This document shows positions 16,420 to 60,500 of a stretch of DNA of 64,000 bases, piece by piece. Below the pieces are notes generated by a model that was given only the letters and a program-made list of their open reading frames with translations, was not told where the DNA came from and did not search any database. The number at the start of each line of letters is the position of its first letter. Positions within the stretch are counted from its first letter, which is position 1. The stretch lies in contig NC_088295.1 of the NCBI RefSeq assembly GCF_032854445.1, positions 93,923,805 through 93,987,804 of the forward strand. Direction: 5' to 3'. Source of the stretch: Liolophura sinensis. Lineage: Eukaryota > Mollusca > Polyplacophora > Chitonida > Chitonidae. The position numbers and the translations under genes are program-made.

Positions 16420-16487
16420 CGTGGGCAAGGTGGTAGTATGGCTGAGCGAAATCTTCAGCTGTGTTGGGGAACAGTCTGCAGCGGCTT

Positions 16488-16495
16488 TATTTATA
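16488..16495 (-). promoter_or_regulatory. TATA box of MRJP-like copy 1
   Basis: TATAAATA on the minus strand, about 70 bp before the chosen start codon. That would place initiation near 16460 with a 5' UTR of about 40 nt. The same box and flank (AAAGNCGCTGC) stand before the second copy, which supports it as the true core promoter. Confidence 0.75.
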
Positions 16496-16519
16496 CAAAA
16501 ATCCATCAGAAACGTCACA

Positions 16520-17819
16520 TCGACAATCTATAGACAACAAAAGAAGCGGAATTTGACGTCAGACTAGGATGCAGGATATCCCGGACACTTGTCAGAGGGG
16601 AATCCCCCAGGCCGTCCAGAGATCCGGCTTTAACGACGCAGTGAACCTATTGACTAGTTAAGGTCTATATATCTATTGTTCACATGCAACAAAACACGCG
16701 CACGAAATTATGCTAGAAGTTTTAGTTACACTGAGGTCTGTCCTGCTGTATAGGCGTTGGTATGGTTGTACTGTAGACTAGTCGAATGGAAATGGTCGAA
16801 CAAAGGAAACATGAAAAACTTTTTTCCATCTAAACTAAAGTCATTTCAAGGTTTACACATTTTAATTTTGCTGCATTCTTATAGCTGTAATATTAAAGGC
16901 ATCTTATAAACGTGATATTATGTTTATTAAATGCTATGTTTCCATGTAATACATAGCTTACTGTATGTTATTTTTGTTCTGATTTCCAATCCTCCCTTAC
17001 ACATGCTCTTACAGATTTCGTTTAAACCATCTATTTACTTCATCGGTTTTTAACACCGTTTTAAAGATTTTTTCACATAGGCCTATACACGTCATATTGA
17101 ATTATTACGTTATCCGGTGGACCAGAAATACAAACAGTGCCATTTTTAAAGCCGTTGTTTTTACGTCTTATCTGACCAGCAGATAAATAGATGTCTCTAT
17201 TATTGTCACTGCTCATAACAATTAATTATCTAATCAGCTGGGAAAAGACAAATTCTTGTAAACGTATGTTCATGTTTATGTAGTAACACCCGCAGAAAGA
17301 GGGAACTGTGTTACGCACACAAACACATACAGTGGGGTTACCTTTTGAAGATGTCCAAACAGGAAAAGTACTTTACAATACACGTATATGCATAGGAGTT
17401 TCCATTAATGCAAGCGTCAGTGCAAATGAAAGTTTGTAGGTAATACTTTCGGATGAGAGTTACAGACCGATGTAAAAATGGCCGATGTAAATATGACCCA
17501 TGTGAAAATGACCGATAATGAAACGGGTGGATCTAAGATAATCCAGAAGGGACGGTTCAATCCCGGAAAGAGTTACATGCAATAAATATCCAAAAACTTC
17601 GAATGAAATTGCATGACACTAATAAGCCACCGGATGGCGCTGTGGATTTTAGATTATACAGATTCCTACACTACAAACACTGCGTCTCAAATATAGGAGA
17701 TACCTTGATCTAACTCAGAGTGCTCGAAATTTCTGTGTATGAGTAAATTATGTGCACGGTGTTATTGACATGAGCTTTCCAGAAAAACTGCTCCCATCAT
17801 CAGCTATATCATAGACACA

Positions 17820-31637: not shown

Positions 31638-33077
31638 TTAGCAGCTGTAAACAATAGCTGGGTCTCTCTTAGCTCTTATGAAACATCTGATTTTACTAAA
31701 GATGTTTCCGCTTTTGCAAGCCAGTATGGCTTTTTTGAGAATCACCAAGAGGCTACATTTGTATTGCGTGGGCTCCTGGAGAGGAGCTCCACGTTTGAGA
31801 TACGACTGCTCGCCCACGTAGACACGGAAGATTCGGAAATTGGCTCCTCGCCTGCCGGTAAAGTCTAAACCACCGCCTTCGGTGTCCAGATAGGTAAACA
31901 GACGGTTAGTGGTCAGCCAGAGGAAGCCGCTGTCGTCCCAGCCGAACGTGTCCGCTTGCTGGAGAGTCTCCGTGTCTTGAGCCAATTCTAGCTGTATCTC
32001 CAATCGGACAGTTCTCTCGGAGTTACTCTGTCGATGCTCTTCGGCCTTTCTGGGCCAGTAGTATACTGCATTTCGAGGAATAATGCCATAGTACAAGTTG
32101 TTCTCACCGTGTGTGATTCCCCCACTCTGACTCAACTTCCTGCCAACATTTCTCACGGCGTTACCGATGTCAGCGTTTGGGTCACGAACCAGGCTGGTGG
32201 GCACCTGATACAAGTTAAATCCTGTCAGAGCGCAGTAATACAGATAGTCGAAACTCGGAGACATGGCGATTCCGTTTATAGGGCCGTCAAAGAAGTAAGT
32301 TTCGTTACTGTACCCTGTGTTTATGTTGAAGGTCCTAGCTGCGGGGTCGGGGTCCGCACCCATGGACGGGTGCTCGTGACGATGAGAACGATCTCGTCTG
32401 GAGTCGTACACTATTAGACCACCAGCGCCGGAGGCGTCAGAGATGAAAGCATAGCCTTGATCATCAATCATCACATCGTTGAGGTAAGAACTGTTGTAAT
32501 GGGCCACCGAGTCGGGAAAAGTATGCGTCTTGACAAAACGGTTCCTCTCAAGGTCGTATATGTGGATCTGGTGAGGGCACAGGTTCAGCGCCTTTGTGCC
32601 AGGTGTTGCCGCCAAGGTGTTGACTCGTCCATTGTCTATCAAGTACATGAGTCCAGTGTTAGGGTCAATCTCCATACTCATCACATACTGCAAAGCGGAA
32701 CAATTGTGTACGTCCTGTGCCTCCCAACTGGGGAATGGTCGCAAAACGGAGCGCCCATTTTTCACGATAACCTCATTGAAGGTGGAGGGAATGCCCAGTG
32801 CCCATCTCGGAACGGTCACAAAGAGGCGGCCTTTATACAGTTTTATACCGTTGATTACGCTGTTTTCTGGGATGTAGCTGCCGCTGGCGATTGCTCTCTG
32901 TTTCTCAGCCTCGGAGGGCCAGTCATATTCTAGCTGGACCCATTCGTGAACTAGAGTTCTGTGACCAAAAGGCAGGTTGGGCGCCCAGGTGCGAGGTCTA
33001 CGATGATGGAAGAAGGGCCGGACACTACAGACAGTCAGTCCGAGGACAAATATCACCAACAGTCGGCTGGGCATCAT
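31638..33077 (-). CDS. Secreted yellow/MRJP-family protein, copy 2
   Basis: Intronless gene for 479 residues from the first Met of the pair at 33077/33074; either could be used. The signal peptide has the core RLLVIFVLGLTVCSVRPFF. The domain order is as in copy 1: FVTVPRWALGIPSTFNEV, MSMEIDPNTGLMYLIDNG, LNDVMIDDQGYAFISDASG, NGIAMSPSFDYLYYCALTG, DTFGWDDSGFLWLTTNRL, then the Cys-containing basic tail ending IVYSC. About three quarters of residues match copy 1 by eye. Differences cluster in the linker around KAEEHRQSNSERTV. N-glycosylation sites include NCS, NSS and NET. It lies 15 kb from copy 1 in the same orientation, so the pair arose by tandem duplication. A secreted, extracellular role is inferred; substrate and function are unknown. 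Confidence 0.9.
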   Translation of the reverse strand: MMPSRLLVIFVLGLTVCSVRPFFHHRRPRTWAPNLPFGHRTLVHEWVQLEYDWPSEAEKQRAIASGSYIPENSVINGIKLYKGRLFVTVPRWALGIPSTFNEVIVKNGRSVLRPFPSWEAQDVHNCSALQYVMSMEIDPNTGLMYLIDNGRVNTLAATPGTKALNLCPHQIHIYDLERNRFVKTHTFPDSVAHYNSSYLNDVMIDDQGYAFISDASGAGGLIVYDSRRDRSHRHEHPSMGADPDPAARTFNINTGYSNETYFFDGPINGIAMSPSFDYLYYCALTGFNLYQVPTSLVRDPNADIGNAVRNVGRKLSQSGGITHGENNLYYGIIPRNAVYYWPRKAEEHRQSNSERTVRLEIQLELAQDTETLQQADTFGWDDSGFLWLTTNRLFTYLDTEGGGLDFTGRRGANFRIFRVYVGEQSYLKRGAPLQEPTQYKCSLLVILKKAILACKSGNIFSKIRCFIRAKRDPAIVYSC

Positions 33078-33139
33078 GGACAAGATGGTATGACTGAACG
33101 AAATGATCAGCTGTGTTAGGGAACAGTCCGCAGCGTCTT

Positions 33140-33147
33140 TATTTATA
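33140..33147 (-). promoter_or_regulatory. TATA box of MRJP-like copy 2
   Basis: TATAAATA on the minus strand, about 65-70 bp before the start codon. It is followed by AAGACGCTGCGGACTGTTCC, nearly the same as in copy 1. The shared promoter shows that the duplication included upstream DNA. Confidence 0.75.
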
Positions 33148-33159
33148 CCGAGCAATTTG

Positions 33160-34965
33160 CTAAAGTAGGTCAGATCCGCATCTATTTACTGAGTACTGAG
33201 CCGTGAAGGTGAAGTGTTCCGGAAGTCTTAAATACCGCAAATTCTCAATGATTCTGTTGACCATCAACAAAGCAGAGGGGTATTTTAGCATGCGGTCATA
33301 TTTCACGAAAATACGGCTTGGGTATTTCGTTCACGATGTGTCATGATTATCGTAAAAGCGCACGTAATATCGCGCGGTCATTTTGCATGACATGTACGCG
33401 AATTTGGTTCAGCCGCGTGTAGTTAAACTACGACTAAAACTGTCTATGTATCGTTTCCGCCCGAGGATTTTGCTGTTTTTGTCTTTCAGGAAGTACTTTA
33501 TCTGGAGAGCTGTAAGAAAGAGAAACCGCCGCGTCATATAGATCAGCATGAGGGTTATACCTGTTATACTGGTGATGTGAAGTCTGTAAAAACATAGCCA
33601 TGGATACGCATAATCGAACTTCTGGCAATGTTTCGCCGATATCGTTGTTAGGCCTTCACGTTTGCCGCTATGAGGAACTACTCTATTTTCTGGTGTATCG
33701 GTGCCGGATGTATATGAAGGCCTGCAGGAGTACAGCAGTATCCGGTATCACTAAATTATACCGTGTATCTCATCTAGCATCTAGTTTCTGTGTCAAATGT
33801 ACCCTTGGGCCCATGCATGCCATATTTCGGAGAATTATTACTTTAAACGTCATGTTTTGCAATACCGTTACTTCTATTTACCGTAACAGGACAGTTCGCC
33901 GAATACCTTGTGACGTACATTAACAGACACGTCATCACTCACTTCGACTGTTACGAGTAATAACTTTTACGAATTCATTTTATAAAAATCTTTTAGCTGT
34001 AGAAAATGAAGAGCATGTATAATATTACTGATGTTTACCTGTTCTTTGTAAAGTATGTTATTGAAGAGCGAGTATGACAGTTACAGCATTTATTTATTGA
34101 TTTAATTGGTTATCATAATTATATCTAATTGCGAATAAGCCTGGGCAGCGGCTGTATGAACGTTTATGTTTACCACATTAATTTGGTGCTTTTATGAACA
34201 TTTCCAATTGATGCGCGACTTATCGATCAGAGGTGTCGCCTGGAAGGGGTTTGGGGGATGGGTGGTGGATACCCCGCCTGTTTGGGTGAACAGAAATAAA
34301 AACTAAAAAAAGGAGAACACTTGAGAATGAGGACCTATTCATTGATTTGATTGGTGGCTCACGCCTTGCACACGAATCTATAGGGGAGAAAGGAGAGTGT
34401 TTGAGTTATTTCCCCTTGCGCGACCGCGATGTTACATACCTTCACAAGATTTGCCAGATAATGACAGTATTTTTCCATTTTTTATCTGTTATTCAATGTA
34501 ATATGATGGAGAAATTTCGCTGTTTATTTACGGACACAGTTGTCTTGGTCTAATTGACTATTATTTGATTTAACTACTTTTTATATACTAAATTGTGCGT
34601 GCGAAGTGCATTTGATTTAATGCGCGTCACTGTTCTGATATACTGTATTTCTACATTTTACAGAACTTATTTACAGCTGCCGAACTGATTAGCGAACACT
34701 TTGTCTCGTAGTGCACGCTGTATGAACTGTTCCTGAAATATTCTCTGCCTACTGAGCATTTTTATCGGTCATGATTACCCGTCTCATCCAGAGAAAAAAT
34801 AAAGAAACACGCGAGCTATCTATCTTTTAAAAAGCACACGTGATGCGAGTTGAGCAGAACTTCGATTGAGCGATATCCGAGGTTCATTCCAGTTTGTCAC
34901 TTTATGGGATGTGTACGTGTGTACGTGTAGACTGTCGACGTACTTTATGAGAGGTGTACGTTTAT
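33160..34965. other. Upstream region of MRJP-like copy 2, nothing else recognised
   Basis: No supported exon or array on either strand. Confidence 0.4.
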
Positions 34966-36113: not shown

Positions 36114-36313
36114 NNNNNNNNNNNNNNNNNNNNNNNNNNNNNNNNNNNNNNNNNNNNNNNNNNNNNNNNNNNNNNNNNNNNNNNNNNNNNNNNNNNNNNN
36201 NNNNNNNNNNNNNNNNNNNNNNNNNNNNNNNNNNNNNNNNNNNNNNNNNNNNNNNNNNNNNNNNNNNNNNNNNNNNNNNNNNNNNNNNNNNNNNNNNNNN
36301 NNNNNNNNNNNNN
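36114..36313. other. Assembly gap of exactly 200 N
   Basis: A run of 200 undetermined bases, probably a fixed-size placeholder. The right border falls inside a tandem array, so array length is probably what broke the assembly. The order and orientation of the two sides should be treated with caution. Confidence 0.97.
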
Positions 36314-39591: not shown

Positions 39592-42500
39592 CTGAAACAA
39601 TGTCATAATCAGAATTCTCACCTTAGCTAAGTATGCCTTCCAAAACAGACAAGACATGAGGAGCTGTTCAAACAGGACAAGCTATATACATCTCAACTAC
39701 ATCTCCACTAGAAGCTCAAAGTTCCCTGGCTATCATTAGGTCATGTAACTTACGAAGTATAGGTCTTTACACAAGCCAAAGACAACAAGTCAAAACACCT
39801 GCTTTAGTGGAAACTTCTAAATACTGAAATACATTCTGAAATGTTTTAAAAAGTTTTACTTTAATAGTGAACATGAGGTGTCAACCCTCCGGACGCAGTA
39901 ACGTGTATGCTAACCTCTGCTAGAGAGAACTTCAGTGACAACAGACTTCTGTGACAACAGATTTACGAGGAGAACTGACCAGTGATAGAGAGGATTTCTG
40001 TGACAACAGACTTCTGAGGTGAACTAACGTGTGATAGAGAGGACTCCTGTGACAACAGATTTCCGAGGTGAACTAACCTGTGGTAGAGGGGACCTCTGAG
40101 ACAACAGATTTCTGAGGTGAACTAACCTGTTGTAGAGGGGACCTCTGAGACAACAGATTTCTGAGGTGAACTGACCTGTGGTAGAGGGGACCTCTGAGAC
40201 AACAGATTTCTGAGGTGAACTGACCTGTGGTAGAGGGGACCTCTGAGACAACAGATTTCTGAGGTGAACTGACCTGTGGTAGAGGGGACCTCTGAGACAA
40301 CAGATTTCTGAGGTGAACTAACGTGTGGTAGAGGGGATCTCTGAGACAACAGATTTCTGAGGTGAACTAACCTGTGGTAGAGGGGACCTCTGAGACAACA
40401 GATTTCTGAGGTGAACTGACCTGTGGTAGAGAGGACTTTTGTGACAACAGATTTCTGAGATGAACTAACCTGTGACAGAGAGGACTTCTGACAAGAGACC
40501 TGAGGTGCACTACCCTGTGGTAGAGAGGACTTCTGTGACAACAGATTTCTGAGGAGAAATGTTCAGTGATACAGAGCATTTCTGAGACAACAGATTTCTG
40601 AGGTGAACTGACCTGTGATAGAGAGGATTTCTGTGACAACAGACTTCTGAGATGAACTAACGCGTGGTAGAGAGGACTTTTGTGACAACAGACTTCTGAG
40701 ATGAACTAATCTGTGACAGAGAGGACTTCTGTGACAACAGATTTCTGAGATGCACTAACCTGTGGTAGAGAGGACGTCTGTGACAACAGATTTCTGAGGT
40801 GAACTAACGTGTGGTAGAGAGGACATCTGAAACAACAGACGTCTGAGGTGAACTAGCCTGTGGTAGAGAGGACTTTTGTGACAACAGACTTCTGAGATGA
40901 ACTAACCTGTGACAGAGAGGACTTCTGTGACAACAGATTTCTCAGATGCACTAACCTGTGGTAGAGAGGACTTCTGTGACAACAGACTTCTGAGATGAAC
41001 TAACCTGTGACAGAGGGGACTTCTGTGACAACAGATTTCTGAAGTGAATTGGCCAGTGATAGAGGGGACTTCTGTGACAACAGACTTCTGAGGTGTACTA
41101 AGATGTCATAGAGGGGACTTCTGTGACAACAGATTTCTGAGGTGAATGTGGTAGAGAGGACTTCTGTGATAACAGACTTCTGAGATGAACTAACCTGTGA
41201 CAGAGGGGACTTCTGTGACAACAGTTTCTGAGGTGAATGTGATAGAGAGGACTTCTGTGACAACAGATTTCTGAAGTGAATTGGCCAGTGATAGAGGGGA
41301 CTTCTGTGACAACAGACTTCTGAGGTGTACTAAGATGTCATAGAGGGGACTTCTGTGACAACAGATTTCTGAGGTGAATGTGGTAGAGAGGACTTCTGTG
41401 ATAACAGACTTCTGAGGTGAACTGACATGTGATAGACAGGATTTCTGTGACAAGAGACTTCTGAGGTGAAATGACCTGTGATAGAGAGGATTTCTGTGAC
41501 AAAAGACTTCCAAGGTGTACTAACCTGCAATAGTGATAACTTCTGTAACAACAGATTTCTGCTGTTCGTTGTAATCCTCCTTTATTTGAAGATACTCCTC
41601 ATTTAGCTTCCTCAGGGCACTGTTGTGAAAACGTACTCCGTTTTTATTGGTGTCTATAGTGATGTAGTTTTTGTTGTTTCTCAAACATCTTTCTTCCTAC
41701 AAAATTAAACCAAAAAATAAAATAATACCTAAACAGCTGCTGTCCTAATTATCTTAAATACACAAGTTGATACTCCACTGTTTTGCTCAAGCTCCATTTC
41801 TAGAGCGAACACTACATGAGAACTGTGTGGAGAGCCTGGCAATGTACACAGAAGCTTGTATTAGACTCTAGGGTAAGAGTGTAACTTTCCAGGAGTGGGC
41901 CATTGCTTATGGAATCACAAAGAACTGGTGGCAGAAACATATGGTTCACCAATCACGCTTTCCAAGAATTTACCTTCTGTGGGCAGCAATGCGTTTGAAG
42001 AATGACACAGGGCTGGTGGCAAAAAACCATAGTTCACAAAAGGTGAGGCATTGGTAAGATTGTAGTGCATCAGTGGTGTGTTAGAGATGTTCCAGAGGTA
42101 AGCTACATGTGGTTGTGAATTAGGAGTGTGCCAGACGGGAGCTGACAGTGTGGCATTGGTGAGCCTTTTCATGTGTCAGAGGTGAGATTGTAGCACATCA
42201 GTGGTGTGTTAGAGATGTTCCAGAGGTAAGCTACATGTAGTTGTGAATTAGGAGTGTGCCAGACGTGAGCTGACAGTGTGGCATTGGTGAGATTGTAGCG
42301 CATCAGTGGTGTGTTAGAGATGTTCTGGGGTGAGCCATATGTGAATTGGGAGTGTGCCAATAGTGTGGCATTGGCGAGCTAATGGTGTGCAAGAGGTGAG
42401 TTTGTAGCGCACCAGTAGTGTGGTTGTGATGAGTTTATGGTGTGCTATAATGGTGAACTACTGCAGAACTATTGCCGAGCTAGTGATTAGCTAAATGTAG

Positions 42501-45500: not shown

Positions 45501-48500
45501 TAATGGACATGTATGCACAACATGGCTGTAATGGACATGTATGCACAACATGACTGTAATGGACATGTATGCACAACATGACTGTAATGGACATGTATGC
45601 ACAACATGACTGTAATGGACATGTATGCACAACATGACTGTAATGGACATGTATGCACAACATGACTGTAATGGACATGTATGCACAACATGTCTGTAAT
45701 GGACATGTATGCACAACATGTCTGTAATGGACATGTATGCACAACATGTCTGTAATGGACATGTATGCACAACATGACTTTAATGGACATGTATGCACAA
45801 CATGACTGTTATGGGCATGTAAGCACAACATGTCTGTAATGGACATGTATGCACAACATGTCTGTAATGGACATGTATGCACAACATGACTGTAATGGAC
45901 ATGTATGCACAACATGTCTGTAATGGACATGTATGCACAACATGTCTGTAATGGACATGTATGCACAACATGACTGTAATGGACATGCATGCACAACATG
46001 ACTGTAATGGACATGTATGCACAACATGACTAATGGGCATGTATGTACAATATGACTGTTATGGGCATGTAAGCATAACATGATTGTAATGGGCATGTAT
46101 GCACAACATGGCTGTAATGGACATGTATGCACAACATGACTGTAATGGACATGTATGCACAACATGACTGTAATGGACATGTATGCACAACATGACTGTA
46201 ATGGACATGTATGCACAACATGTCTGTAATGGGCATGTATGCACAACATGTCTGTAATGGACATGTATGCACAACATGACTGTAATGGACATGTATGCAC
46301 AACATGACTGTAATGGACATGCATGCACAACATGACTGTAATGGACATGTATGTACAACATGGCTGTAATGGGCATGTATGCACAACATGACTGTAATGG
46401 GCATGTATGCACAACATGACTGTAATGGACATGTATGTACAAAATGACTGTAATGGACATCTGATAAAGCCTAGATAAAACCAGGCGTGTCCCACAGGCT
46501 CCAAGAGTCAAGCTTGCCTAGTGGAGGCAGTGATTTAAAGTGAGAGTAGAGAGCTCAACATGACCCATAAGGAGTATGACAATTAACCTATTCATTGTTT
46601 CCATCTTTAGCTCACGTTTTCCAATAACAAATGACAATGTGTCCAAAGATATATTCCTGGGGTTGTTAATAAGAGTAATATGACCAGTACTTATTTAGGG
46701 TGGGGCGAGTAAGCTGGTTGAGCTATGTACACCACCCCCAGATGTTTGTGTTGACTCACCTGGCCAGTGTTTATTCCAGGTGGGGCGAGGAAGCTGGTTG
46801 AGCTATGTTCACCCCCCAGATGTTTGTGTTGACTCACCTGGCCAGTGTTTATGTAGGGTGGGGCGAGGAAGCTGGTCGATCTATGTACACCCCCAGATGT
46901 TTGTGTTGACTCACCTGGCCAGTGTTTATGTAGGGTGGGGCGAGGAAGCTGGTTGAGCTATGTCCACCCCCCAGATGTTTCTGCCGACTCACCTGACCAG
47001 TATTTATTTACGGTGGGATGAGGAAACTGGTTGAGCTATGTACACCCCCAGATGTTTGTGTTGACTCACCTGACCAGTATTTATGTAGGGTGGGGCGAGG
47101 AAGCTGGTCGATCTATGTACACCCCCAGATGTTTGTGTTGACTCACCTGACAAGTGTTCATTCCAGGTGGGGCGAAGAAGCTGGTTGAGCCATGTACATC
47201 CCCAGATGTTTGTGTTGACTCACCTGACCAGTGTTTATTTAGGGTGGGGCGAGGAAGCTGGTCGATATATGTACACCACCCCCAGATGTTTGTGTTGACT
47301 CACCTGACAAGTGTTCATTCCAGGTGGGGTGAGGAAGCTGGTTGAGCCATGTACACCCCCAGATGTTTGTGTTGACTCACCTGACCAGTGTTCATTCCAG
47401 GTGGGGCGAAGAAGCTGGTCGATCTATGTACACCACCACCAGATGTTTGTGTTGACTCACCTGACAAGTGTTCATTCCAGTTGGGGTGAGGAAGCTGGTC
47501 GAGCCATGTACACCCCAGATGTTTGTGTTGACTCACCTGACCAGTGTTCATTCCAGGTGGCGTGAGGAAGCTGGTCGATCTATGTACACCACCCAAAGAT
47601 GTTTGTGTTGACTCACCTGGCCAGTGTTTATTTACGGTGGGGCAAAGAAGCTGGTTGAGCTATGTACACCACCCCCAGATGTTTGTGTTGACTCACCTGA
47701 CCAGTGTTTACTTAGGGTGGGGCGAGGAAGCTGGTCGAGCCGGGTACACCCCCAGATTTTTGCGTTGACTCACCTGGCCAGTGTTTATTTAGGGTGGGGC
47801 GAGGAAGCTGGTCGATCTATGTACACCACCCCCAGATGTTTGTGTTGACTCACCTGACCAGTGTTTATTTACGGTGGGGCGAAGAAGCTGGTCGATCTAT
47901 GTACACCACCCCCAGATGTTTGTGTTGACTCACCTGACAAGTGTTTATTTACGGTGGGGCGAGGAAGCTGGTCGATCTATGTACACCCCCAGATGTTTGT
48001 GTTGACTCACCTGACAAGTGTTCATTCCAGGTGGGGTGAGGAAGCTGGTCGATCTATGTACACCACCCCCAGGTGTTTGTGTTGACTCACCTGGCCAGTG
48101 TTTATTTACAGTGGGTTGAGGAAGCTGGTCGATCTATGTACACCCCCAGATGTTTGTGTTGACTCACCTGACAAGTGTTCATTCCAGGTGGGGTGAGGAA
48201 GCTGGTCGATCTATGTACACCACCCCCAGATGTTTGTGTTGACTCACCTGGCCAGTGTTTATTCCAGGTGGGGCGAAGAAGCTGGTCGATCTATGTACAC
48301 CACCCCCAGATGTTTGTGTTGATTCGCCTGACAAGTGTTCATTCCAGGTGGCGTGAGGAAGCTGGTCGAGCCATGTACATCCCCAGATGTTTGTGTTGAC
48401 TCACCTGGCCAGTGTTTATTTAGGGTGGGGCGAGGAAGCTGGTCGATCTATGTACACCCCCAGATGTTTGTGTTGACTCACCTGACCAGTGTTTATTTAG

Positions 48501-51500
48501 GGTGGGGCGAAGAAGCTGGTCGATCTATGTACACCACCCCCAGATGTTTGTGTTGACTCACCTGGCCAGTGTTTATTTAGGGTGGGGCGAAGAAGCTGGT
48601 CGATCTATGTACACCACCCCCAGATGTTTGTGTTGATTCGCCTGACAAGTGTTCATTCCAGGTGGCGTGAGGAAGCTGGTCGATCTATGTACACCACCCC
48701 CAGATGTTTGTGTTGATTCGCCTGACAAGTGTTCATTCCAGGTGGGGCGAAGAAGCTGGTCGATCTATGTACACCACCCCCAGGTGTTTGTGTTGACTCA
48801 CCTGGCCAGTGTTTATTTACAGTGGGTTGAGGAAGCTGGTCGATCTATGTACATCCCCAGATGTTTGTGTTGACTCACCTGGCCAGTGTTTATTTAGGGT
48901 GGGGCGAGGAAGCTGGTCGATCTATGTACACCCCCAGATGTTTGTGTTGACTCACCTGGCCAGTGTTTATTTAGGGTGGGGCGATGCTGACTCACCCGGT
49001 TTGTGATTATCAGTCACACTGTGTGATGTTTATGTTGACCTACCTTATTTGTGATTATCAGTCACACTATGTGATGTTGTGTTGACTCACCTTATTTGTG
49101 ATTATCAGTCAGATTGTGATGTTTGTGTTGACTCACCTTATTTGTGATTATCAGTCAGATTGTGATGTTTGTGTTGACTCACCCGGTTTGTGATTATCAG
49201 TCAGATTGTGATGGTTTGTGCTGACTCACCTTATTTGTGATTATCAGTCAGATTGTGATGTTTGTGTTGACTCACCTTATTTGTGATTATCAGTCAGATT
49301 GTGATGTTTATGTTGACTCAACTTGTTTGTGATTATCAGTCACACAGTGATGTTTGTGTTGAATCACCTTGTTTGTGATTATCAGTCAGATTGTGATGTT
49401 TGTGTTGACTCACTTTATTTGTGATTATCAGTCACACTGTGATGTTTGTGCTGACTCACCTTGTTCAACTGAGCCTTGATGCTTTCCTCTAACTCATCCA
49501 TACGTTCACGGAGACCTGAAAGTCAGGACATCAATGCTTGCTTTATCTGACAACATACAATATCATGTCTATATACAGGTGTATACATGCAGGACCAATT
49601 GATGGCATGTGCTTCGTTAGCTCGGAGATCCATTGGCCATGTTCCCAGCTAGCTTTCCCATTAAAACACTCTGAATCAATACATTCACTAATCTGAAATT
49701 CGAAAAAAGTCCCTGTCTCGATGCTGAACGCCACAAAAAGAGGTGCCCGTGCCCTAAAAGTAATTCTGAATTGATATCACCTCATTACGTGGGAATAGTA
49801 AGGACAATAACATCGCAATTAATGCAAAAGTCACCATGCAATCCACAGGACTGCATTAGAACTTCATAAACCTGAATTTTCGAATCACGTCACTTGTCTG
49901 ATCATCTCATTTTCTCATAACAGTGAAAGTTCCTTTCTGTGCATAATTAACTCACAAATTTAAGTTAAGACTTCCACACAATTTGTCAGTTGCCTTTTAG
50001 ATGGTGTACATCTTGTTGTCTCAATTTATTTATTTATTTGATTGATGTTTTATGCTGTACTCAAGAATATTTCACTTATACAACGGCGGCCAGCATTATG
50101 GTGGGAGGAAAGCGGGCAGAGCCCGGGAAAACCCACAACCATCCGCAGGTTGCTGGCAGACCTTCCCACGTACGGCCGGATAAGGAAGCCAGCGTTGGTC
50201 TCAATCAGATCATGCCACGAGTTTATCTTTTTCTGGACAAGTGCAGCCAACTCAAACTGAAAATGCAGTCAGCGAAGTTTGTCCTTACTGCCGATGTGAC
50301 AGGTACATTTGTGTTATATGTGACATTATGGTCTTTAATATGCATGAATAACTAAGTGATACGAAGAATTACAGGAAACCTGCTTTTGTAGTGAAAAGCT
50401 TCAATATATTTCTATATATTTCAGAAATCAACGCTCCAAAGGCATGTAAGCGTTCACACCTGGATATGCAGAAGGGGGATTTTACAAATCCAGTAGATTA
50501 TATGTTAGTGTTTCACACCTGGATATGCAGAAGGGGGATTTTACAAATCCAGTAGATTATATGTAAGTGTTTCAAACCTGGATATGCAGAAGGGGGATTT
50601 TACAAATCCAGTAGATTACATGTAAGTGTTTCACACCTGGATATGCAGAAGGGGGATTTTACAAATCCAGTAGATTATATGTAAGTGTTTCACACCTGGA
50701 TATGCAGAAGGGGGATTTTACAAATCCAGTAGATTATATGTAAGTGTTTCACACCTGGATATGCAGAAGGGGGAATTTACAAATCCAGTAGATTATATGT
50801 AAGTGTTTCAAACCTGGATATGCAGAAGGGGATTTTACAAATCCAGTAGATTACATGTAAGTGTTTCACACCTGGATATGCAGAAGGGGGATTTTACAAA
50901 TCCAGTAGATTATATGTAAGTGTTTCACACCTGGATATGCAGAAGGGGGATTTTACAAATCCAGTAGATTATATGTAAGTGTTTCACACCTGGATATGCA
51001 GAAGGGGGATTTTACAAATCCAGTAGATTATATGTAAGTGTTTCACACCTGGATATGCAGAAGGGGGATTTTACAAATCCAGTAGATTATATGTACTGTA
51101 TACATACAGGGATTCATTATTCATTAATAATGTGCAGCTTAAGTAAGACTACACACATTTACACCAGTTCCTGTTATTGGAGAAACCTTTTTGGTTTTCC
51201 TTATAGGTGGAGTAGATCCTTTTTTTTTGTAAATGATGCTGATACTCCTGCCATATGGAGAATTGAGGTGCATCTCACCGGTCAGTCCTTCATCAAAGTC
51301 TGGCTTTATAAGGTACTCATGGTTTTCCACCTGGGACAGGTCAACTGTTGCCTCTACCATTTCCTGGTACTTACTGAAGTCCATCAACAATTCCTGTAAT
51401 CATGGCAACACAAACTATACAATTCCTGTAATCATGGCAACACAAACTATACAGTACTTATCCATCTAGTGAAGGAAACACTTCCCTGCTTTTCTGTTGT

Positions 51501-54500
51501 TTATTTTTAACAGAACAAATATTCCTCTTTATTCACAGGGCTCCAGATCTGATAAGATCATTTCCAAAGGTTCACACAACAATGTCATTATTGAGGGGTC
51601 AAAGGGTTGACTAAAATGCCACTGTCAGAATTCCACAAAACCTGTTAATGTTGTTAACGACCTAAAATTCCTCTCACCAAAGAGCAATTTTAGAGGCAAT
51701 AAACGTGACCAAATATTACTGTAGGTGATAAAACTTTTCCCAATAGGATATTATTCAGCCTCCTACAAGAAAACACCTTTCTAGGATGAATGGACCTCTC
51801 AGAAACAGGAAAAATGAGCAACATCGTCTTGGATGAAACTTTAGGTCTATCACCATTGTAGTCAAAGCTACTCAGGTTGATAAATACGATGTCCACAGAC
51901 TCTGTGCTATTTCAGCGTGTCCTTTATTTGTATGCCTTTGCCCATTCTCACTACTTGAGGAGCTTTGGTCACAATAATTCACACACCACTTTTGACATAA
52001 TTTCCTGTAGAATGTCCGTCCTCACCAGACATCCTCACCACAATCAGCTATTCTCACCTTCATAGGATTTGTGAAACTTCCATTAGTAAGTTCCTGTGCT
52101 TGCCCCCATGTTTCTCCAAACGCCTCTAACAAATATGGCATTTTGTCCAGGCCTTGATACACTCTATAGCAGTCCTGTCAAGGAGAGATAACAACCATAA
52201 TTGAGACACCAGTGGTGTAACTTAACGCTTTCCTCATCAAAGAGTAGAAAATCTCTCCGGCAACCAACTTTGCCAATGTGCCTGCCCCCACCAGAAAGTG
52301 CATTTCTTTTGCCGATCAGTCCGGTCTAAAGTATCAGAAGTCAGTAATGTTATTCATTGAAACACAAATTCTTCAGCATGGCATTAAGTACAATCAAACA
52401 GGCAACTAAATAAATAAATTTTATTGAAGCAAATCCTCCGCCGAAGCAAAATAAAAACAAACCCTCAAATAAAATGGCTGTCACAACAACCTAGAGAAGG
52501 AGGCTATTTGTACTCTTCACAATCTGGGACGTTTCGTTACACAACTTGCAAGAGTACAACCCTGCGGAATTTCCCCTATCACAGAGAATGTACTTTCATC
52601 CCTGGGTTGACTGCAATGCTTTTACAGTTGTCAAGTGACGATGCATCACTTTTTGACAAATTATAAAGGCCCTCCCGGAAATGCCGATAGAAACTCGTGG
52701 GCTTCAAAATCAGCTACTACAAATGTGGAATACAACCATTACAAGCGACAATGGCAGTCTGTTCGGTCTTGGAAGGTAACGATTCCATGGGCGACTGAAG
52801 TGGAATATGGATGTGGAACCCGGCACACGTAAATACATCGTGTGCTCCATTTGCAGTGAATACACCGACGTCAAGCTTTGCACTGACCCTAATGACAGGA
52901 CTTAAAATGATCCTTTTATTCATGGCTGCAGTTTAGCATGTAACAATGCACTTTCAGAAGTACATTATGAAAAAGGCATTAAAATGATTCTGACATTTTT
53001 TTTTTTTTCTGACAAGAAATTATCACGCTTCACAAGAAACTCTTAACTGGCCCTGGTTGAATCATTGATAATCACATAAAATTTGCCACCTGAAGAATAC
53101 TAAACTTTAGGTGAAATACAGTAATTTACAGAATATTTCACTCATACGACAGCAGACAGCATTATGGTGAGGAAACCAAGACCATCCACGGATTGCTAGC
53201 AGCATTTCCCACATACACAGCGGACAGTAATTATGGTGGGGAAACCCAAGACCATCCACGGATTGCTAGCAGCATTTCCCACATACAACAGCAGACAGTA
53301 TTATGGTGGGGAAACCCAAGACCATCCACGGATTGCTAGCAGCATTTCCCACATACAACAGCAGACAGTATTATGGTGGGAAACCCAAGACCATCCACGG
53401 ATTGCTAGCAGCATTTCCCACATACAACAGCGCACAGTATTATGGTGGGGAAACCCCAAGACCATCCATGGATTGCTAGCAGCATTTCCCACATACAACA
53501 GCGGACAGTATTATGGTGGGGAAACCCAAGACCATCCACGGATTGCTAGCAGCATTTCCCACATACAACAGCAGACAGTATTATGGTGGGGAAACCCAAA
53601 ACCATCCACGGACTGCTAGCAGCATTTCCCACATACAACAGCGGACAGTATTATGGTGGGGAAACCCAAGGCCATCCACGGATTGCTAGCAGTATTCCCC
53701 ACATGCGACAGGCAAGGAAGCCAGCATGAACTGGACCTGAACTCATCACCATCTGAAAGGCGCCAGGGCCACTGCCTTAGTGGCTCCCTAACTCGGCCAT
53801 GGGGGCCCCTACCAGGCATATGACATGTTAAATATTTGTTGCTGGAATCTTACTTCCTGCTAGGTATTTGAACATTAAAATTTCAGGCCAATTGAAAATA
53901 TTTCAGGGCAACCAGGTTTAAGATTTTGGTTGCTCTGATGGCAACCACCTGAAAAAGTAAAGTTAAACCACTGGATAGAGGGGAGAAAATCATAGATGAG
54001 AGGGCGTGCAGCAGAAAGACTCTCAGCAGGGTTGGGATTAAGAGAAGAACGCTTATTTGGGTTACACATGGATCGCCATCCGTCTAATTATGGGGAACGG
54101 TTGCCTTTTCGCCTGGAGCTAAGGCTAAGATTCAAACATTTTAAGTTCACAGAGAAAAGGGCTTTAAAATCTGAACAGCAGGACAAGTTTAAGTCGATTT
54201 ACTCTGGCACTTGTCATCATACTGTCATCATTTTGGACGATGAGCAGTCTGCACTCATAGCAATCTATGGGCATTATATTAATCATTTTGGACATTAAAC
54301 GCGCCTCCACACTAAAGACTTCCACGTAGCCACGCACACTGAAAGTCAGCTAAAATGGTCAGTTGATCTCCGAGAAAATGTCGAAAAAGTAAGGGGACAA
54401 TTTCTGTCACGGAAAAAACACTTCTTTCGTGGGACTTTCACGATGACTTTACATATGAAATGAGTGAAGACAAATGATTGACTAGACTCTAATGTAAAGT

Positions 54501-57500
54501 ATGTTTGGAAAATATTCCCAAGATTCGTGGCGAGGCAAAGATTCGAGGCATCGGTGGACAGTCACTGCAGCCCCTCATAAACCATGTGGACGGTGTAACT
54601 TACGTCCACAAATCCAATGTGACAAGACATGTCAAGTCCGGATCTTTGCATGACTGGGCAAAGCTAAAATTCTGTTTATTTAGGCAATGAGAACCATCGG
54701 CAACAACAACATGCACTGTTTGCAGCACGAGTAGCACACAGGTTACCATCACCGGAGATTAATGCCAACCCTGCTCAGATAGCTTATGAAGAGAACAACG
54801 AGTAACATTACCAGAGCTTGGACGTAACTATAAAACAACTGAGGCCTTCTAGCTACAAATTGCTTGAGCAAGGTATAAACTGAAACTAGACAAAAAGTTG
54901 GCATCAGTAATCATAAACAGAAACTCACCTGCAGGTTGGCTTTCTTTCGCTGAAATTTTTTGGAAAGGCGTTGGAAATCAGGAATTCTTCGCAGCTGATC
55001 TTCCTGTAGAATTTGTCGTAACTCTGTGTCTTCCATGAATGACTCCACAATATTGAGTCGCTCCTCTGGTAGAGCCAGAAATAAAAATATCGTAAGGGTC
55101 AAGCTTCTAGTGTACAGGGCAGACAAAACTACTGCTATGACCAAATGCCAAGCCGAGTCATAAACATGTACATCCGATGTGTATCAGAGTGGGCTGGCAA
55201 TTCATCTCAAACCACATTCTTACTGAAGTTAAAGGCATGTGTATTTGTGGTATTTACAGGTATGTACATGTAAAGGAATGTTACTTGATACATGTACCAA
55301 CCTCCAAAAATTGACCCCAATACAAAGGTCATCTGTTTTATGGGCTCATAAACCTACCCCCTCTGACTAGTCACTGACAAACTTTTCCACATCTAAAATA
55401 TGTAACATGCAGACTTTTTAAAGCTTATAAACCATTCTTGGTGAAGCTTATGTATCATGTTGATATCAACCAAGACTGTGGTATACGGTGGGGAAACCCA
55501 AGACCATCCACGGATTGCTAGCAGCATTTCCCACATACAACAGCAGACAGTATTATGGTGGGGAAACCCAAGACCATCCACGGATTGCTAGCAGCATTTC
55601 CCACATACAACAGCGGACAGTATTATGGTGGGGAAACCCAAGACCATCCACGGATTGCTAGCAGCATTTCCCACATACAACAGCAGACAGTATTATGGTG
55701 GGGAAACCCAAGACCATCCACCGATTGCTAGCAGCATTTCCCACATACAACAGCGGACAGTATTATGGTGGGGGAAACAGAAGACCATCCACATATTGCT
55801 AGCAGCATTTCCCACATACAACAGCGGACAGTATTATGGTGGGGAAACCCAAGACCATCCACGGATTGCTAGCAGCATTTCCCACATACAACAGCGGACA
55901 GTATTATGGTGGGGAAACCCAAGACCATCCACGGATTGCTAGCAGCATTTCCCACATACAACAGCGGACAGCATTATGGTGGGGAAACCCAAAACCATCC
56001 AAGGATTGCTGGCTGACCTTTCCACGTATGGCCAGAGAGGAAGCCACATGAGATGAACTTGAATTCAGAGCAACCAGAGCAGGTCAATACGCTGCGCTAT
56101 CTGGACTTTGAGACAGACACTGTAACCATTAGGCCACCAAAGCAGTCGTATCCTTTTGATATCAACCAATGGCTGCATATCTAACAATGGCTGCATATCA
56201 ACCAATGGCCACATATCAACCACTGGCTGTATATTAACCAATGGCTGCATATCAACAAATGTGTGCATATCTAACAATGGCCCCAAATCAGCCCATGGCT
56301 GCATATCAACCAATGCCTGCATGTCAATCAATGGCTGCATATCAACCTATGACTGAAGATCAACCAATGGCTGCATATCTAACAATGGCTGCATATCAAC
56401 CAATGGCTGCATATCTTACAATGGCTGCATATCTAACAATGGCTGCTTATTAACCTATGGCTGAATATCAACCAATGGCTACATATCTAACAATGGCTGC
56501 ATATCTAACAATGGCTGCATATCTAACAATGGCTGCATATAAACCAATGGCTGCATATCTAACAATGGCTGCATATCAACCAATGGCTGCATATCAACCA
56601 ATGGCTGCATATCAACCAATGGCCGCATATCTAACAATGGCCGCATATCAACCAATGGCCGCATATCTAACAATGGCTGCATATGTTATTTATTTTTATT
56701 TATTTGATTGGTGTTTTATGCCGTACTCAAGAATGTTTCACTTATAAGACAGCGGCCAGCATTATGGTGGGTGGAAATCGGGCAGAGCCCGGGGCAAACC
56801 CACGACCATGCTGGAGAGGAAGCCAGCATGAGCTGGACTTGAACTCACAGCGACCGCATTGGTGAGAGGCTCCTGAGTCCTTACGCTGCGCTAGCGCGTT
56901 AACCAACTGAACCGCGGAGGCCCCCTGCATATCTTACAATGGACGCATATTAACCTATGGCTGCATATCTAATAATGGCTGCATATCAACCAATGGCTGC
57001 ATACCAACCAATGGTGAAGAATAAAATGTCCGAAAGAAAGTTTACCTATCCTATTGATATCAACCAGTGGCTGTTTTACCCACTGTGACAACAGCCTCTG
57101 ACCTTGGGCCGTCCGACATTTATTCAACAGTCCCAGGATGCACTGGTTCTTATTCCCACCTGCATTTGACAAAAGAATAAATGTTGTCATATGAAGTTTA
57201 CATTCTGTTGCTTTTCTATTTTAACACTTCAAGAATACCCAGCTTAATTTGACTAGAAGATGACAGGAATCTCTCTGAAGATCAGTCTATATTTACATTA
57301 TACCAAAAAACCAAATATCACATATAATAATTTACCAGATTTATTCACATCTTGATGTGTACCATCAATAGTGGATCTGCATGTACTTTATGCTCAACTC
57401 ACACTAGTTTTACTCACCCCCCACCCACCACCTCCCTTTGTCCCTGGCCTGACATCCTCACCTCCCTTTGTCCCTGGCCTGACATCCCCACCTCCCTTTG

Positions 57501-60500
57501 TCCCCGGCCTCACACCCCCATCTCCCTTTGTCCCTGGTCTGACATCCCCACCTCCCTTTGTCCCTGGCCTGACATCCCCAATCCCTTTGTCCCTGCCCTC
57601 ACACCCCCACCTCCCTTTGTAACTGGCCTCACACCCCCACCTCCCTTTGTCCCCGGCCTCACACCCCCACCTCCCTTTGTCCCCGGCCTCACAGCCTCAC
57701 CTCCATTGTCCTTGGCCTCACACCCCCACCTCTATTTGTCCCCAGCCTCACACCCCCACCTCCCTTTGTCCCTGGCCTCCCTTTGTCCCTGGCCTCCCTT
57801 TGTCCCCGGCCTCACACCCCCACCTCTCTTTGTCCCTGGCCTCACACCCCCACCTCCCTTTGTCCCCGGCCTCACACCCCCACCTCCCTTTGTCCCCAGC
57901 CTCACACCCTCACCTCCCATTGTCCCTGGCCTCACATCCCCACCTCCCTTAGTCCCCAGCCTCACCTCCCATTGTCCCTAGCCTCACACCCCCACCTCCC
58001 TTTGTCCCCAGCCTCACACCCTCACCTCCCTTTGTCCCTGGCCTCACATCCCCACCTCCCTTGTATTGTTGCTTTTTGTATGTTTGAATGTATGTACCTT
58101 CACTTTCCAAATTACACGATGCTTTATGTTCTTTTATATATGCTGATGTATTTTGATTGAACTCATTTCCTATATATTGTTTTCTCTGTAAGGGCCTTGG
58201 GGAAGAACAGTTTAATTGTAAATTAGCCGAGCTAAATTCAATAATTATTAATTATCCGCCTTTATCCACTGGCTCCATGCCCACCTCCCCAATTATCCCA
58301 TGGACTCACCTTCTAGAGAGTTAGGCAGCAGGTTCAGGGCTCTGACAGCAGCTGCATCTAGCCGTAAATACTGATCCAAATCAAACGATGTCAAGCTGAA
58401 CTGGTTAAAATTATCTTCATCTGATAACAACTGAAGCACAATAAACATACCTCCTGTCAATCAGATAAATGTATGTGTATTGTGCAGGCAATAACAGTCA
58501 TCAAAAATCAATTCATCAACAATGTTTGCAGATAAATATGGCGTTAGTGAGCCAGTGTAGCAGCAACCTTGCAATCCAGGTATTTCATCTTCCCTCCGGG
58601 TATCTCATCTTCCCTCCAGGTATTTGATCTTACCTCCAGCTATCTGGTCTTACCTCCAGGTATTTGATCTTACATCCACATATTTCATCTTACCTCCAGG
58701 TATTTGATCTTACATCCGGGTATTTCATCTTACCTCCACATATTTCATCTTACCTCCAGGTATGTGATCTTACTTCCACATATTTGTTTTTACCTCCAGG
58801 TATTTGATCTTACCTCCACACATTTGTTTTTACCTCCAGGTATTTAATCTTACATCAAGGTATTTGATCTTACATCTACATATTTGTTTTTACCTCCAGG
58901 TATTTGTGTTTACCTCCAGGCATTTGATCTTACATCCAGGTATTTGATCTTACATCCTCAAATTTGTTTTCACCTCGAGGTATTAGATCTTACCTCTAGG
59001 TATTTGATCTTACTTCCACGTATTTGATCCTACCTCCAGGAATTTGATTTTTACCTCCACATATTTGATGTTATCTCCACATATTTGATCTTACCTCCAG
59101 GAATTTGATTTTTACCTCCACGTATTTGATCTCACCTTTAGGTATTTGATCTTACATGTAACCCTTGGTTTTGATCTTTCCAAGCATTTGATTTTACCAA
59201 ATTTGCTCTCAACTCTTAGTTTTGTTCTCACCTGCATCTCATCTCCAGGTATTTGATCTGACCTCCAGGTATTTGGTCTTACATTAAGGTCTTTGTTCAC
59301 AACTTCAGGTATTTGATCACACCTTCAGGTATTTGACACCATCTCCAAGTATTTTACTTCACCCTCAGTTATCTGACCTCACCTCCAGGTATTTGGTTTT
59401 ACATTCTGGTATTTGGTCAGAACTTCAGGTATTTGATCACACCTTCAGGTATTTGACTTCATCCCAAAGTATTTTACCTCACCCTCAGGTATCTGATCTC
59501 ACCACCAGGTATTTGGTCTCACAACTTCAGGTATTTGATCACACCTTCAGGTATTTTACTTCACCCTCAGGTATCTGATCTCACCTCCAGGTATTTGGTT
59601 TTACATTCTGGTATTTGATCAGAACTTCAGGTATTTAATCACACCTTCAGGTATTTGACTTCATCCCAAAGTATTTTACCTCACCCTCAGGTATCTGATC
59701 TCACCACCAGGTATTTGGTCTCACAACTTCAGGTATCTGATCATACCTTCAGGTATTTGATCATACCTGCAGGTATTTGACCACACCTTCAGGTATTTGA
59801 CCACACCTTCAGGTATTTTTCATCTCCAGGTATTTAAGCTTACCTCAAGGTACCTGTATGTTTTTGTATCCCACTTTCAGGTATTTGATCTTACCTCAAG
59901 GTATTTGATGAGACTGGAGATACAGCTCATGGCATGGCATTTGTCCATCTCCGCTGAAATACAGGAATAATCAGAGTCAGGAAATTCAACATTAAAAACA
60001 AGACCACTGATGCTGCTAGAAGATTTTGATACAGACTTGATATTTTCTGTATCATCTATAACTTTCTTATAAACTGATCTCTATCTTTTTTACCATTGAT
60101 ACAGATATAGTGTTTGATGTACATAGCTGGACATTGACACATTAAATAACGAAAACTCCTGGTTCCTGATTCAGATGCACCTTTACAGGAACAATACAAG
60201 GCATCATAGCTGTTATTATACAAAAGGTAATTTAATGACAGCCAAACATGACAGAACACAACGACCCAACAGAACACACCACAACCAAACAGGACAGAAA
60301 ACAACAACCAAACAGAACACACAACAACCAAACAGAACATACCACAACCAAACAAGACAGAAAACAATAACCAAACTAAACATACCACAACCAAACAGGC
60401 CAGAAAACAACAACCAAACAGAACACACAACAACCAAACAGAACACATAACCACCAAACAGAACACATCACCACCAAACAGAACACATCACAACCCAACA

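What the first reader, a model, noticed from the sequence alone, without database searches (positions are those of the whole stretch)
58575..59953. A 1.3-kb minisatellite whose 20-bp unit is the MSH2 exon B end plus its splice donor
The exon B/intron border reads ATCAAATACCTTGAG|GTAAG and the array directly behind it repeats ATCAAATACCTGGAG|GTAAG more than 60 times. The unit is thus 15 coding bases plus the 5' splice site. About 19 extra copies still carry a perfect GTAAG. This gives a long row of competing donors, or a U1 snRNA decoy, right behind an authentic exon in an essential repair gene. I know of no described class of repeats named for this.
Basis: partly seen in the sequence, partly recalled or inferred. 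Interest (0 to 1): 0.93.

Follow-up and report, generated by a model that had tools for sequence, protein, structure and literature searches.

The report
Repeated splice donors behind chiton exon
In a chiton (a mollusc), the end of one exon of the DNA-repair gene MSH2, together with the signal that marks where the exon stops, has been copied head-to-tail into a long row of look-alikes; this kind of repeat was known from lancelets, and here it recurs in several exons of the gene and beside exons of other genes.

Summary
Behind MSH2 exon B (minus strand, 59895-59953) about 67 further copies of a 20-bp unit, 15 exon bases plus GTAAG, fill 90% of a 1,464-bp intron; 19 carry GTAAG besides the authentic donor. 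The exon end is protein-conserved and the array DNA was found nowhere else, so the exon is the source. The genome is the chiton Liolophura sinensis (published as L. japonica). The claim of no described class is wrong: these are "mirages", exon-intron-boundary minisatellites reported in amphioxus. New here: a mollusc, 68 copies, and recurrence. Five multi-copy arrays span donor junctions in this gene against 0.4-0.6 expected under uniform seeding, and arrays begin at annexin and RRP7 exons elsewhere (a polycystin-like and an unnamed exon are less certain). Clathrin has none in 27 exons; 4 of 18 myosin exons pass the threshold, two as neighbouring exon copies and two weakly. Conservation of the GT columns gives no consistent sign of selection on the decoys. 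An in-frame stop precedes them, so their use should give a nonsense message. Most likely: neutral expansion by slippage or unequal exchange, with splicing keeping to the first donor (inferred; no RNA data).

The parts
59895..59953 (-). MSH2 exon B (59 nt, human residues ~259-278, ends SSLIKYLE); its last 15 nt are the exonic part of the repeat unit
58431..59894 (-). Intron after exon B, 1,464 bp, GT-AG, phase 0; at human nt 834, where human MSH2 has no intron (nearest human borders 792 and 942, recalled)
58575..59894 (-). The array: about 67 copies of a 20-bp unit [exon end 15 nt + GTAAG]; 19 extra GTAAG; 202-bp higher-order repeat at 59306-59799
59839..59843 (-). Nearest extra GTAAG, 51 nt downstream of the authentic one, in a copy reading TACCTTGAG|GTAAG as in the exon; a CAG|GTACCT site of equal consensus score lies 41 nt downstream
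58310..58430 (-). MSH2 exon C (LLSDEDNF...), next exon; B+C align without gap to human MSH2
39944..41561 (-). Second donor mirage: 49-bp unit, 33.5 copies, last 37 nt of exon I + GTTAGT.CACCT; TRF counts the true exon end (41525-41561) as a copy
41525..41696 (-). MSH2 exon I, source of the 49-bp array
48988..49465 (-). Third donor mirage: 46-bp unit, 10.2 copies, running into the last 6 nt of exon 14 (49460-49515; donor AAG|GTGAGTCA)
46681..48984 (-). 80-bp array (29.4 copies) that carries the same exon-14 donor; with the previous array 27 copies of GTGAGTCA[AG]CACAAACATC
56159..57014 (-). 18-bp arrays (56159-56684 and 56925-57014) behind exon D that resemble the exon end CAGCCACTGGTTGATAT without the donor; 25 places with 3 or fewer mismatches in the 946 bp after the exon; best copy (25 of 27 nt) near the far end
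51387..51453 (-). 32-bp x 2.1 duplication across the ACCEPTOR of exon G (CCATGATTACAG|GAATTGT)

Best explanation
The array is a mirage: a minisatellite seeded by a tandem duplication of the 3' end of MSH2 exon B with its 5' splice site, then expanded and partly homogenised by slippage or unequal exchange inside the intron (shown: sequence origin, orientation, register, no second locus found; inferred: the expansion process). It has no selected function; it is tolerated because every added copy lies downstream of the authentic donor, splicing keeps to the first, exon-proximal donor (inferred), and the intron gives an in-frame stop at +16, ahead of the first strong decoys 41 and 51 nt downstream, so any use of a decoy should give a nonsense message (computed; its decay inferred). 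It is one of several donor-junction arrays in this gene and in this chiton genome.
For: Border/unit identity 19/20 and adjacency. The exon end is protein-conserved and the array was found only here, so exon to array. Of 52 window arrays, 50 (units of 10 bp or more) were compared with 10 MSH2 exons on both strands (1,000 pairs, the top 25 shuffled): four pairs score 24 or more and beat all 300 of their shuffles, and each is an array beside its own exon on the gene strand; two other pairs also score 24 and are each reached by 1 of 300. 26 MSH2 exons against their own introns: 8 downstream and 1 upstream match at or above 28, against a null 99th percentile of 27-28. Five arrays spanning donor junctions versus 0.38-0.58 expected under uniform seeding over an assumed 25 junctions, P 5e-5 to 3e-4. 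Same anatomy at annexin and RRP7 exons elsewhere. GT columns 0.85/0.90 against 0.81 (sd 0.10) for the others. In-frame stop at +16.
Against: No transcripts, so use of the first donor is inferred; 15 of 126 downstream GT sites within 2 kb score as high as the authentic donor, which makes perfect fidelity surprising. The enrichment rests on one gene found because of one of its arrays (without exon B: P 6e-4 to 3e-3). Genome-wide the raw excess of AGGTAAG triplets (1,840 against 901, 734 and 585 for other words) largely disappears when divided by how common each word is outside arrays in the sequence held (38, 25, 14, 18). Clathrin (27 exons) shows none; 4 of 18 myosin exons pass the threshold, but two match neighbouring copies of one exon and two score 30-31, under the null maximum of 38 for downstream matches and not above the 31 for upstream ones. 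Two MSH2 hits (exon 14: 35; e22: 30) also lie under that maximum; exon 14 is carried by its array, e22 is only two copies. In the exon-5 and exon-2 arrays the GT columns are a little better kept than the rest.
Confidence: 0.8

Rival explanations
1. Functional donor cluster: repeated 5' splice sites bind U1 snRNP to hold, delay or protect this transcript (a decoy or telescripting-like row) and are kept by selection.
For: 19 extra GTAAG and 10 GTGAG in one intron; donor-containing arrays recur in the gene; GT columns somewhat better kept than the rest in the exon-5 array (0.93/0.97 against 0.844, sd 0.124) and in the ten copies behind exon 2 (1.00/1.00 against 0.955, sd 0.098).
Against: GT columns are not clearly better kept in exon B's array (0.85/0.90 against 0.81, sd 0.10) and are worse kept in exon I's (0.79/0.76 against 0.895, sd 0.134); none of the four departs from the rest by more than about one sd. 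Only 9 of 67 added copies keep AG|GTAAG. The arrays differ in unit, length and donor from exon to exon.
Confidence: 0.07
2. Birth or relocation of the intron: the array is not only inside an intron but made it, a tandem duplication of a coding segment with AG|GT having turned the repeats into intron.
For: The intron at human nt 834 has no human counterpart and is 90% array. Only 4 of 21 mapped chiton MSH2 introns sit exactly at human positions and 2 more within 3 nt (human positions partly seen, partly recalled). The amphioxus authors proposed this route (passages).
Against: Arrays also sit on introns shared or nearly shared with human: exon 2 (nt 211) and exon I (nt 1756 against 1759). The start of exon C does not look like the unit: exon C against the intron before it scores 18, background level.
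Confidence: 0.15
3. Chance or reverse origin: a pre-existing satellite whose unit happens to match, or exon B as the derived copy.
For: The exon-2 border (GTGATCAAGTACCTGGG) resembles the same unit by coding similarity (VIKYL/LIKYL), so such a match can arise between unrelated places.
Against: 0 of 195,555 random 20-mers match as well; no other locus in a 609-Mb search (common words skipped); the exon end codes for conserved MSH2 residues.
Confidence: 0.02
4. Assembly artefact.
For: The assembly has errors here: one contig seems mis-oriented, and exons 12 and 19 show frame breaks; HiFi depth is only 14X.
Against: The array is 1.3 kb, much shorter than the mean HiFi read of 8,347 bp, and its copies differ from one another.
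Confidence: 0.01

Closest known systems
Mirages of amphioxus (Adh3; globins BflGb6 and BflGb9; TnC; PGBD5)
   Same: Minisatellite-like tandem copies of an exon-intron boundary, on donor or acceptor side, many copies with splice signals; Adh3 units 10-72 bp (PMC3087553, passages; PMC3902484, passages).
   Different: Mollusc, not lancelet; 68 copies of 20 bp here (globin BflGb6: 6 and 3 units of 150-160 bp); several arrays in one gene. The amphioxus papers report that splicing is not disturbed; no transcripts here.
Intron gain by tandem duplication of AGGT (Rogers model, named; potato RdRp gene, PMC4974935, listing and start of abstract only)
   Same: Tandem duplication of a segment with a splice site.
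   Different: Many copies and an already working intron; no proof that the intron is new.
Ordinary intronic minisatellites
   Same: Short unit, many copies, higher-order repeat; 66% of the MSH2 body examined is tandem array.
   Different: The seed spans an exon end and its donor.

Membership tests
Mirage (exon-intron-boundary minisatellite) | Head-to-tail tandem repeats of minisatellite unit size | tested here: met
   20 bp x 63.4; 68 copies by cyclic alignment
Mirage (exon-intron-boundary minisatellite) | Unit spans an authentic exon-intron boundary and lies next to it | tested here: met
   19/20 identity, array abuts exon B
Mirage (exon-intron-boundary minisatellite) | Many copies keep splice signals | tested here: met
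   19 extra GTAAG, 10 GTGAG
Mirage (exon-intron-boundary minisatellite) | Messenger RNA is spliced normally in spite of the copies | not testable with these tools
   No RNA; only that 16 exons joined at the predicted sites give one open 585-aa frame at 61% identity to human
Mirage (exon-intron-boundary minisatellite) | Length instability between alleles or cells | not testable with these tools
   One assembly, no second haplotype
Intron newly gained by tandem duplication | Intron absent in close outgroups and exon sequence duplicated on both sides | tested here: inconclusive
   Not at a human position; no repeat of the unit at exon C's start; no outgroup molluscs available
Selected donor/U1 decoy array | Donor bases kept better than the rest of the unit | tested here: not met
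   This array: 0.85/0.90 against 0.81, sd 0.10; other arrays of the gene vary on both sides of their mean

The most novel reading that the evidence does not exclude
In this chiton 5' splice junctions are preferred birth sites of minisatellites, so that hundreds of genes carry rows of decoy donors behind working exons, kept harmless by first-donor choice and early in-frame stops; the same process feeds the lineage's turnover of intron length and position.
Probability: 0.25. Interest if true: 0.75.

Novelty: new member of a known kind. Interest (0 to 1): 0.55.

Why it matters
In the papers I found, mirages were a lancelet oddity. A mollusc with a single gene carrying five or more of them, one with 67 spare copies of the real donor context, makes two old questions testable in one genome: how the spliceosome keeps to the right donor among near-identical ones, and whether tandem duplication of AG|GT borders feeds intron gain and sliding. 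It also warns gene-prediction pipelines: such rows of GTAAG sites invite false exon ends.

Tried and rejected
Chance match and reverse origin: rejected. Selection on decoy donors: no consistent sign. Genome-wide word test as proof of donor preference: raw excess 1,840 AGGTAAG triplets against 901/734/585; by distinct arrays counted from the listings, 13 in the first 16.2 Mb of C1 against 13 for AGGATAG over all 96.4 Mb of C1; but AGGTAAG is also commoner outside arrays in the (gene-rich) sequence held (38 against 14-25), so triplet counts per site show no clear excess; I do not rest on it. Association of mirages with introns not shared with human: none (2 of 7 mirage introns shared or nearly so, 6 of 21 mapped introns overall). 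A post hoc hint: in-frame stops come earlier in 6 mirage introns (+3 to +43) than in 13 others (Mann-Whitney p 0.018); exon D's array, with a stop at +75, was left out of the six, and e1, e19, e20, e25 and e26 were in neither group; not corrected for looking. Rfam: 0 matches in the window at gathering scores. Of 81 myosin matches 18 were examined; of 13 AGGTAAG arrays listed in the first 16.2 Mb 12 were fetched; of 12 control arrays asked for only 6 were had (361 bp each, against 721-801 bp for the test set), so the 0 of 6 there is weak, and both sets were judged by eye. In one search two arrays with units under 10 bp were left out. Exon 14 was entered one base off (true limits). The RRP7 exon peptide was typed with one serine too few. 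Exon 18 of MSH2 was not located apart from exon 19.

Full report
WHAT IS THERE. On the minus strand the window holds much of the MSH2 gene. Exon B (59895-59953) ends ATCAAATACCTTGAG|GTAAG, and the 1,464-bp intron behind it (58431-59894) is 90% a 20-bp tandem array (87% by TRF's limits). A cyclic alignment gives 68 copies counting the exon's own; the others average 78.8% identity to the exon-border unit; 20 GTAAG lie in the intron, one of them authentic, and 10 are AG|GTAAG, again counting the authentic one. The array consensus matches the border at 19 of 20 bases, which 0 of 195,555 random 20-mers of the window do, and with up to 3 mismatches 21 border-like 20-mers occur, all in the exon end and array, where shuffles give none. 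Of 11 added copies with 18 or 19 matching bases, 9 lie in the half far from the exon, so similarity does not fall off with distance; the middle holds a 202-bp higher-order repeat.

WHICH CAME FIRST. Exons B and C together align without gap to human MSH2 residues 265-318 (E 1.2e-15), so the exon end is old coding sequence. A 161-bp piece of the array searched against the 609-Mb genome returns 11 matches, all inside this array (the tool skips very common words). No second MSH2 was seen: the other matches, on four other contigs at 36-51% identity, look like paralogues (only best candidates are scored). The array is therefore derived from the exon.

THE SPECIES. Contig C1 is 96,433,062 bases, C2 28,395,274, C3 27,489,247, in 632 contigs and 609.46 Mb; the Liolophura japonica assembly paper gives longest scaffold 96,433,062, 632 scaffolds, scaffold_10 28,395,274, scaffold_11 27,489,247 and 609.50 Mb (PMC11068029, passages). 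A correction renames the species Liolophura sinensis (PMC12441733, whole text). It is a chiton. Mitochondrial COX1 from C632 looks molluscan by recall.

NOT ALONE IN THIS GENE. Of the window's 52 tandem arrays, 50 were compared with ten MSH2 exons on both strands (1,000 pairs; the top 25 against 300 shuffles each). Four pairs score 24 or more and beat all their shuffles: exon I end with a 49-bp, 33-copy array (40 of 49 bases, including GTTAGT; the array runs into the exon), exon B with its array, exon G's acceptor with a 32-bp duplication, exon D's end with an 18-bp array. Two further pairs also score 24, each reached by 1 of 300 shuffles. After fetching 200 kb of flank, 26 MSH2 exons were compared with up to 2 kb of their own flanking introns: downstream matches at or above 28 for exons 2 (74), 5 (91), B (50), D (44), 14 (35), I (53), e22 (30) and the last exon (115, a duplication across the stop codon), upstream for G (44); the null of 1,669 and 1,673 mismatched pairs has its 99th percentile at 27 and 28 and maxima of 38 and 31. 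Exons 2 and 5 have 53-bp arrays of about 10 and about 29 copies. The donor of exon 14 recurs 27 times in the 46- and 80-bp arrays behind it.

HOW SURPRISING. The MSH2 body examined (75 kb) holds 44 arrays, 33 with at least five copies, and is 66% tandem array. If array seeds fell anywhere, 0.58 (all arrays) or 0.38 (five or more copies) would span one of 25 donor junctions by 5 nt each side; five do (exons 2, 5, B, 14, I), P 3e-4 or 5e-5; leaving out exon B, which brought me here, P 3e-3 or 6e-4. At acceptors there is one two-copy case.

OTHER GENES. Clathrin heavy chain: 0 of 27 exons; only 2.2% of that stretch is tandem array. Myosin: 4 of 18 exons pass 28, in two of four stretches; two match neighbouring copies of one exon, as in mutually exclusive exons, two are weak (30, 31). 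A genome pattern search for three AGGTAAG within short spacing lists 13 arrays in the first 16.2 Mb of C1. Of the 12 whose upstream end was read, four begin at what looks like an exon's donor: annexin (E 1.9e-19), RRP7A (E 3.7e-10), a polycystin-like exon (only E 0.039, no Pfam match; its donor reads GC) and an unnamed exon in L047 (no Pfam match); a fifth has an open frame 130 nt off, not the source; in seven no exon was in reach. Six control arrays of AGGATAG showed none, on shorter stretches. Both readings were by eye.

HOW IT WORKS. Shown: origin from the exon border, register, adjacency. Inferred: growth by slippage or unequal exchange. The GT columns are about as conserved as the rest of the unit (exon B 0.85/0.90 against 0.81, sd 0.10; exon I 0.79/0.76 against 0.895, sd 0.134; exon 5 0.93/0.97 against 0.844, sd 0.124; exon 2, ten copies, 1.00/1.00 against 0.955, sd 0.098), so I see no consistent selection for or against the decoys. 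15 of 126 GT sites within 2 kb match the donor consensus as well as the authentic site (7 of 9 bases); the first lies 41 nt downstream (CAG|GTACCT), the first GTAAG 51 nt downstream. Reading into the intron meets a stop at +16, so decoy use would give a nonsense message, never a longer protein. That the first donor wins is inferred; sixteen exons (2-17) joined at the predicted sites give one 585-aa open frame, 61% identical to human.

KNOWN OR NEW. [quoted passage not shown] the Adh3 and globin data suggested undisturbed splicing, and the globin authors proposed them as a source of introns (PMC3087553 and PMC3902484, passages; the identifier that I tried for the Adh3 paper, recalled, is not held). 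So the class exists. In the listings of my searches (9 of 9 shown; 10 of 11; 10 of 83) I recognised no exon-border minisatellite in a mollusc, within an open-access library and mostly from titles; an earthworm metallothionein paper describes intronic tandem repeats (PMC12783039, passages) but does not tie them to exon borders in what I saw. The chiton assembly paper's main text has no occurrence of 'tandem', and a comparative chiton paper none of 'tandem repeat' or 'minisatellite' (PMC12005716, passages). The chiton case extends the class to another phylum and shows it several times in one gene. Intron positions: of 21 mapped chiton MSH2 introns 4 are at human positions and 2 within 3 nt (human borders 211, 1076, 1276, 1386, 1510, 1661, 1759, 2005, 2210 and 2634 follow from names in PMC2788582, passages; 366, 645, 792, 942 and 2458 are recalled). 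That makes the intron-turnover reading worth testing, though mirage introns are not specially the unshared ones.

Noticed in passing
window 36314-95504 (between 200-N runs at 36114-36313 and 95505-95704): MSH2 residues 1-628 lie on the minus strand here while the ATPase exons lie on the plus strand at window 97.9-135.5k; flipping the contig between the two N runs would give one gene in order, so the scaffold probably has this contig in the wrong orientation.
   Followed up: partly
window 52058-52174 (exon 12) and L017 3919-4004 (window 97919-98004, exon 19): Frame breaks against human MSH2 in two otherwise conserved exons of the only MSH2 copy seen; perhaps base errors of a 14X HiFi assembly, or in exon 12 two changes that compensate.
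   Followed up: partly
L014 8891-9424 and 4624-6118 (window 72891-73424 and 68624-70118): Donor mirages of MSH2 exons 2 and 5, 53-bp units, outside the window; several copies behind exon 5 still read like ...DN[DE]QFSNL in translation.
   Followed up: yes
L021 1369-1530 (window 135369-135530): About the last 80 coding bases of MSH2 with the stop codon match (score 115) a stretch 22 nt into the 3' side: a duplication across the stop codon.
   Followed up: no
window 14992-16527 and 31641-33185, minus: Two open frames of 512 and 515 aa with a major royal jelly protein (yellow) domain (Pfam E 1.6e-24 and 2.5e-28), each in one piece.
   Followed up: no
L035: A myosin heavy chain exon ([22 protein letters not shown]...) present in neighbouring diverged copies, as in mutually exclusive exons.
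   Followed up: no
G000:C99: Contig C99 carries seven COX1 matches about 15.5 kb apart: probably an unresolved mitochondrial concatemer.
   Followed up: no
MSH2 gene body, window 39466-77103 and 97919-135530: 66% of the gene body is tandem array, against 2% in the clathrin heavy chain stretch: array load differs strongly between genes.
   Followed up: partly
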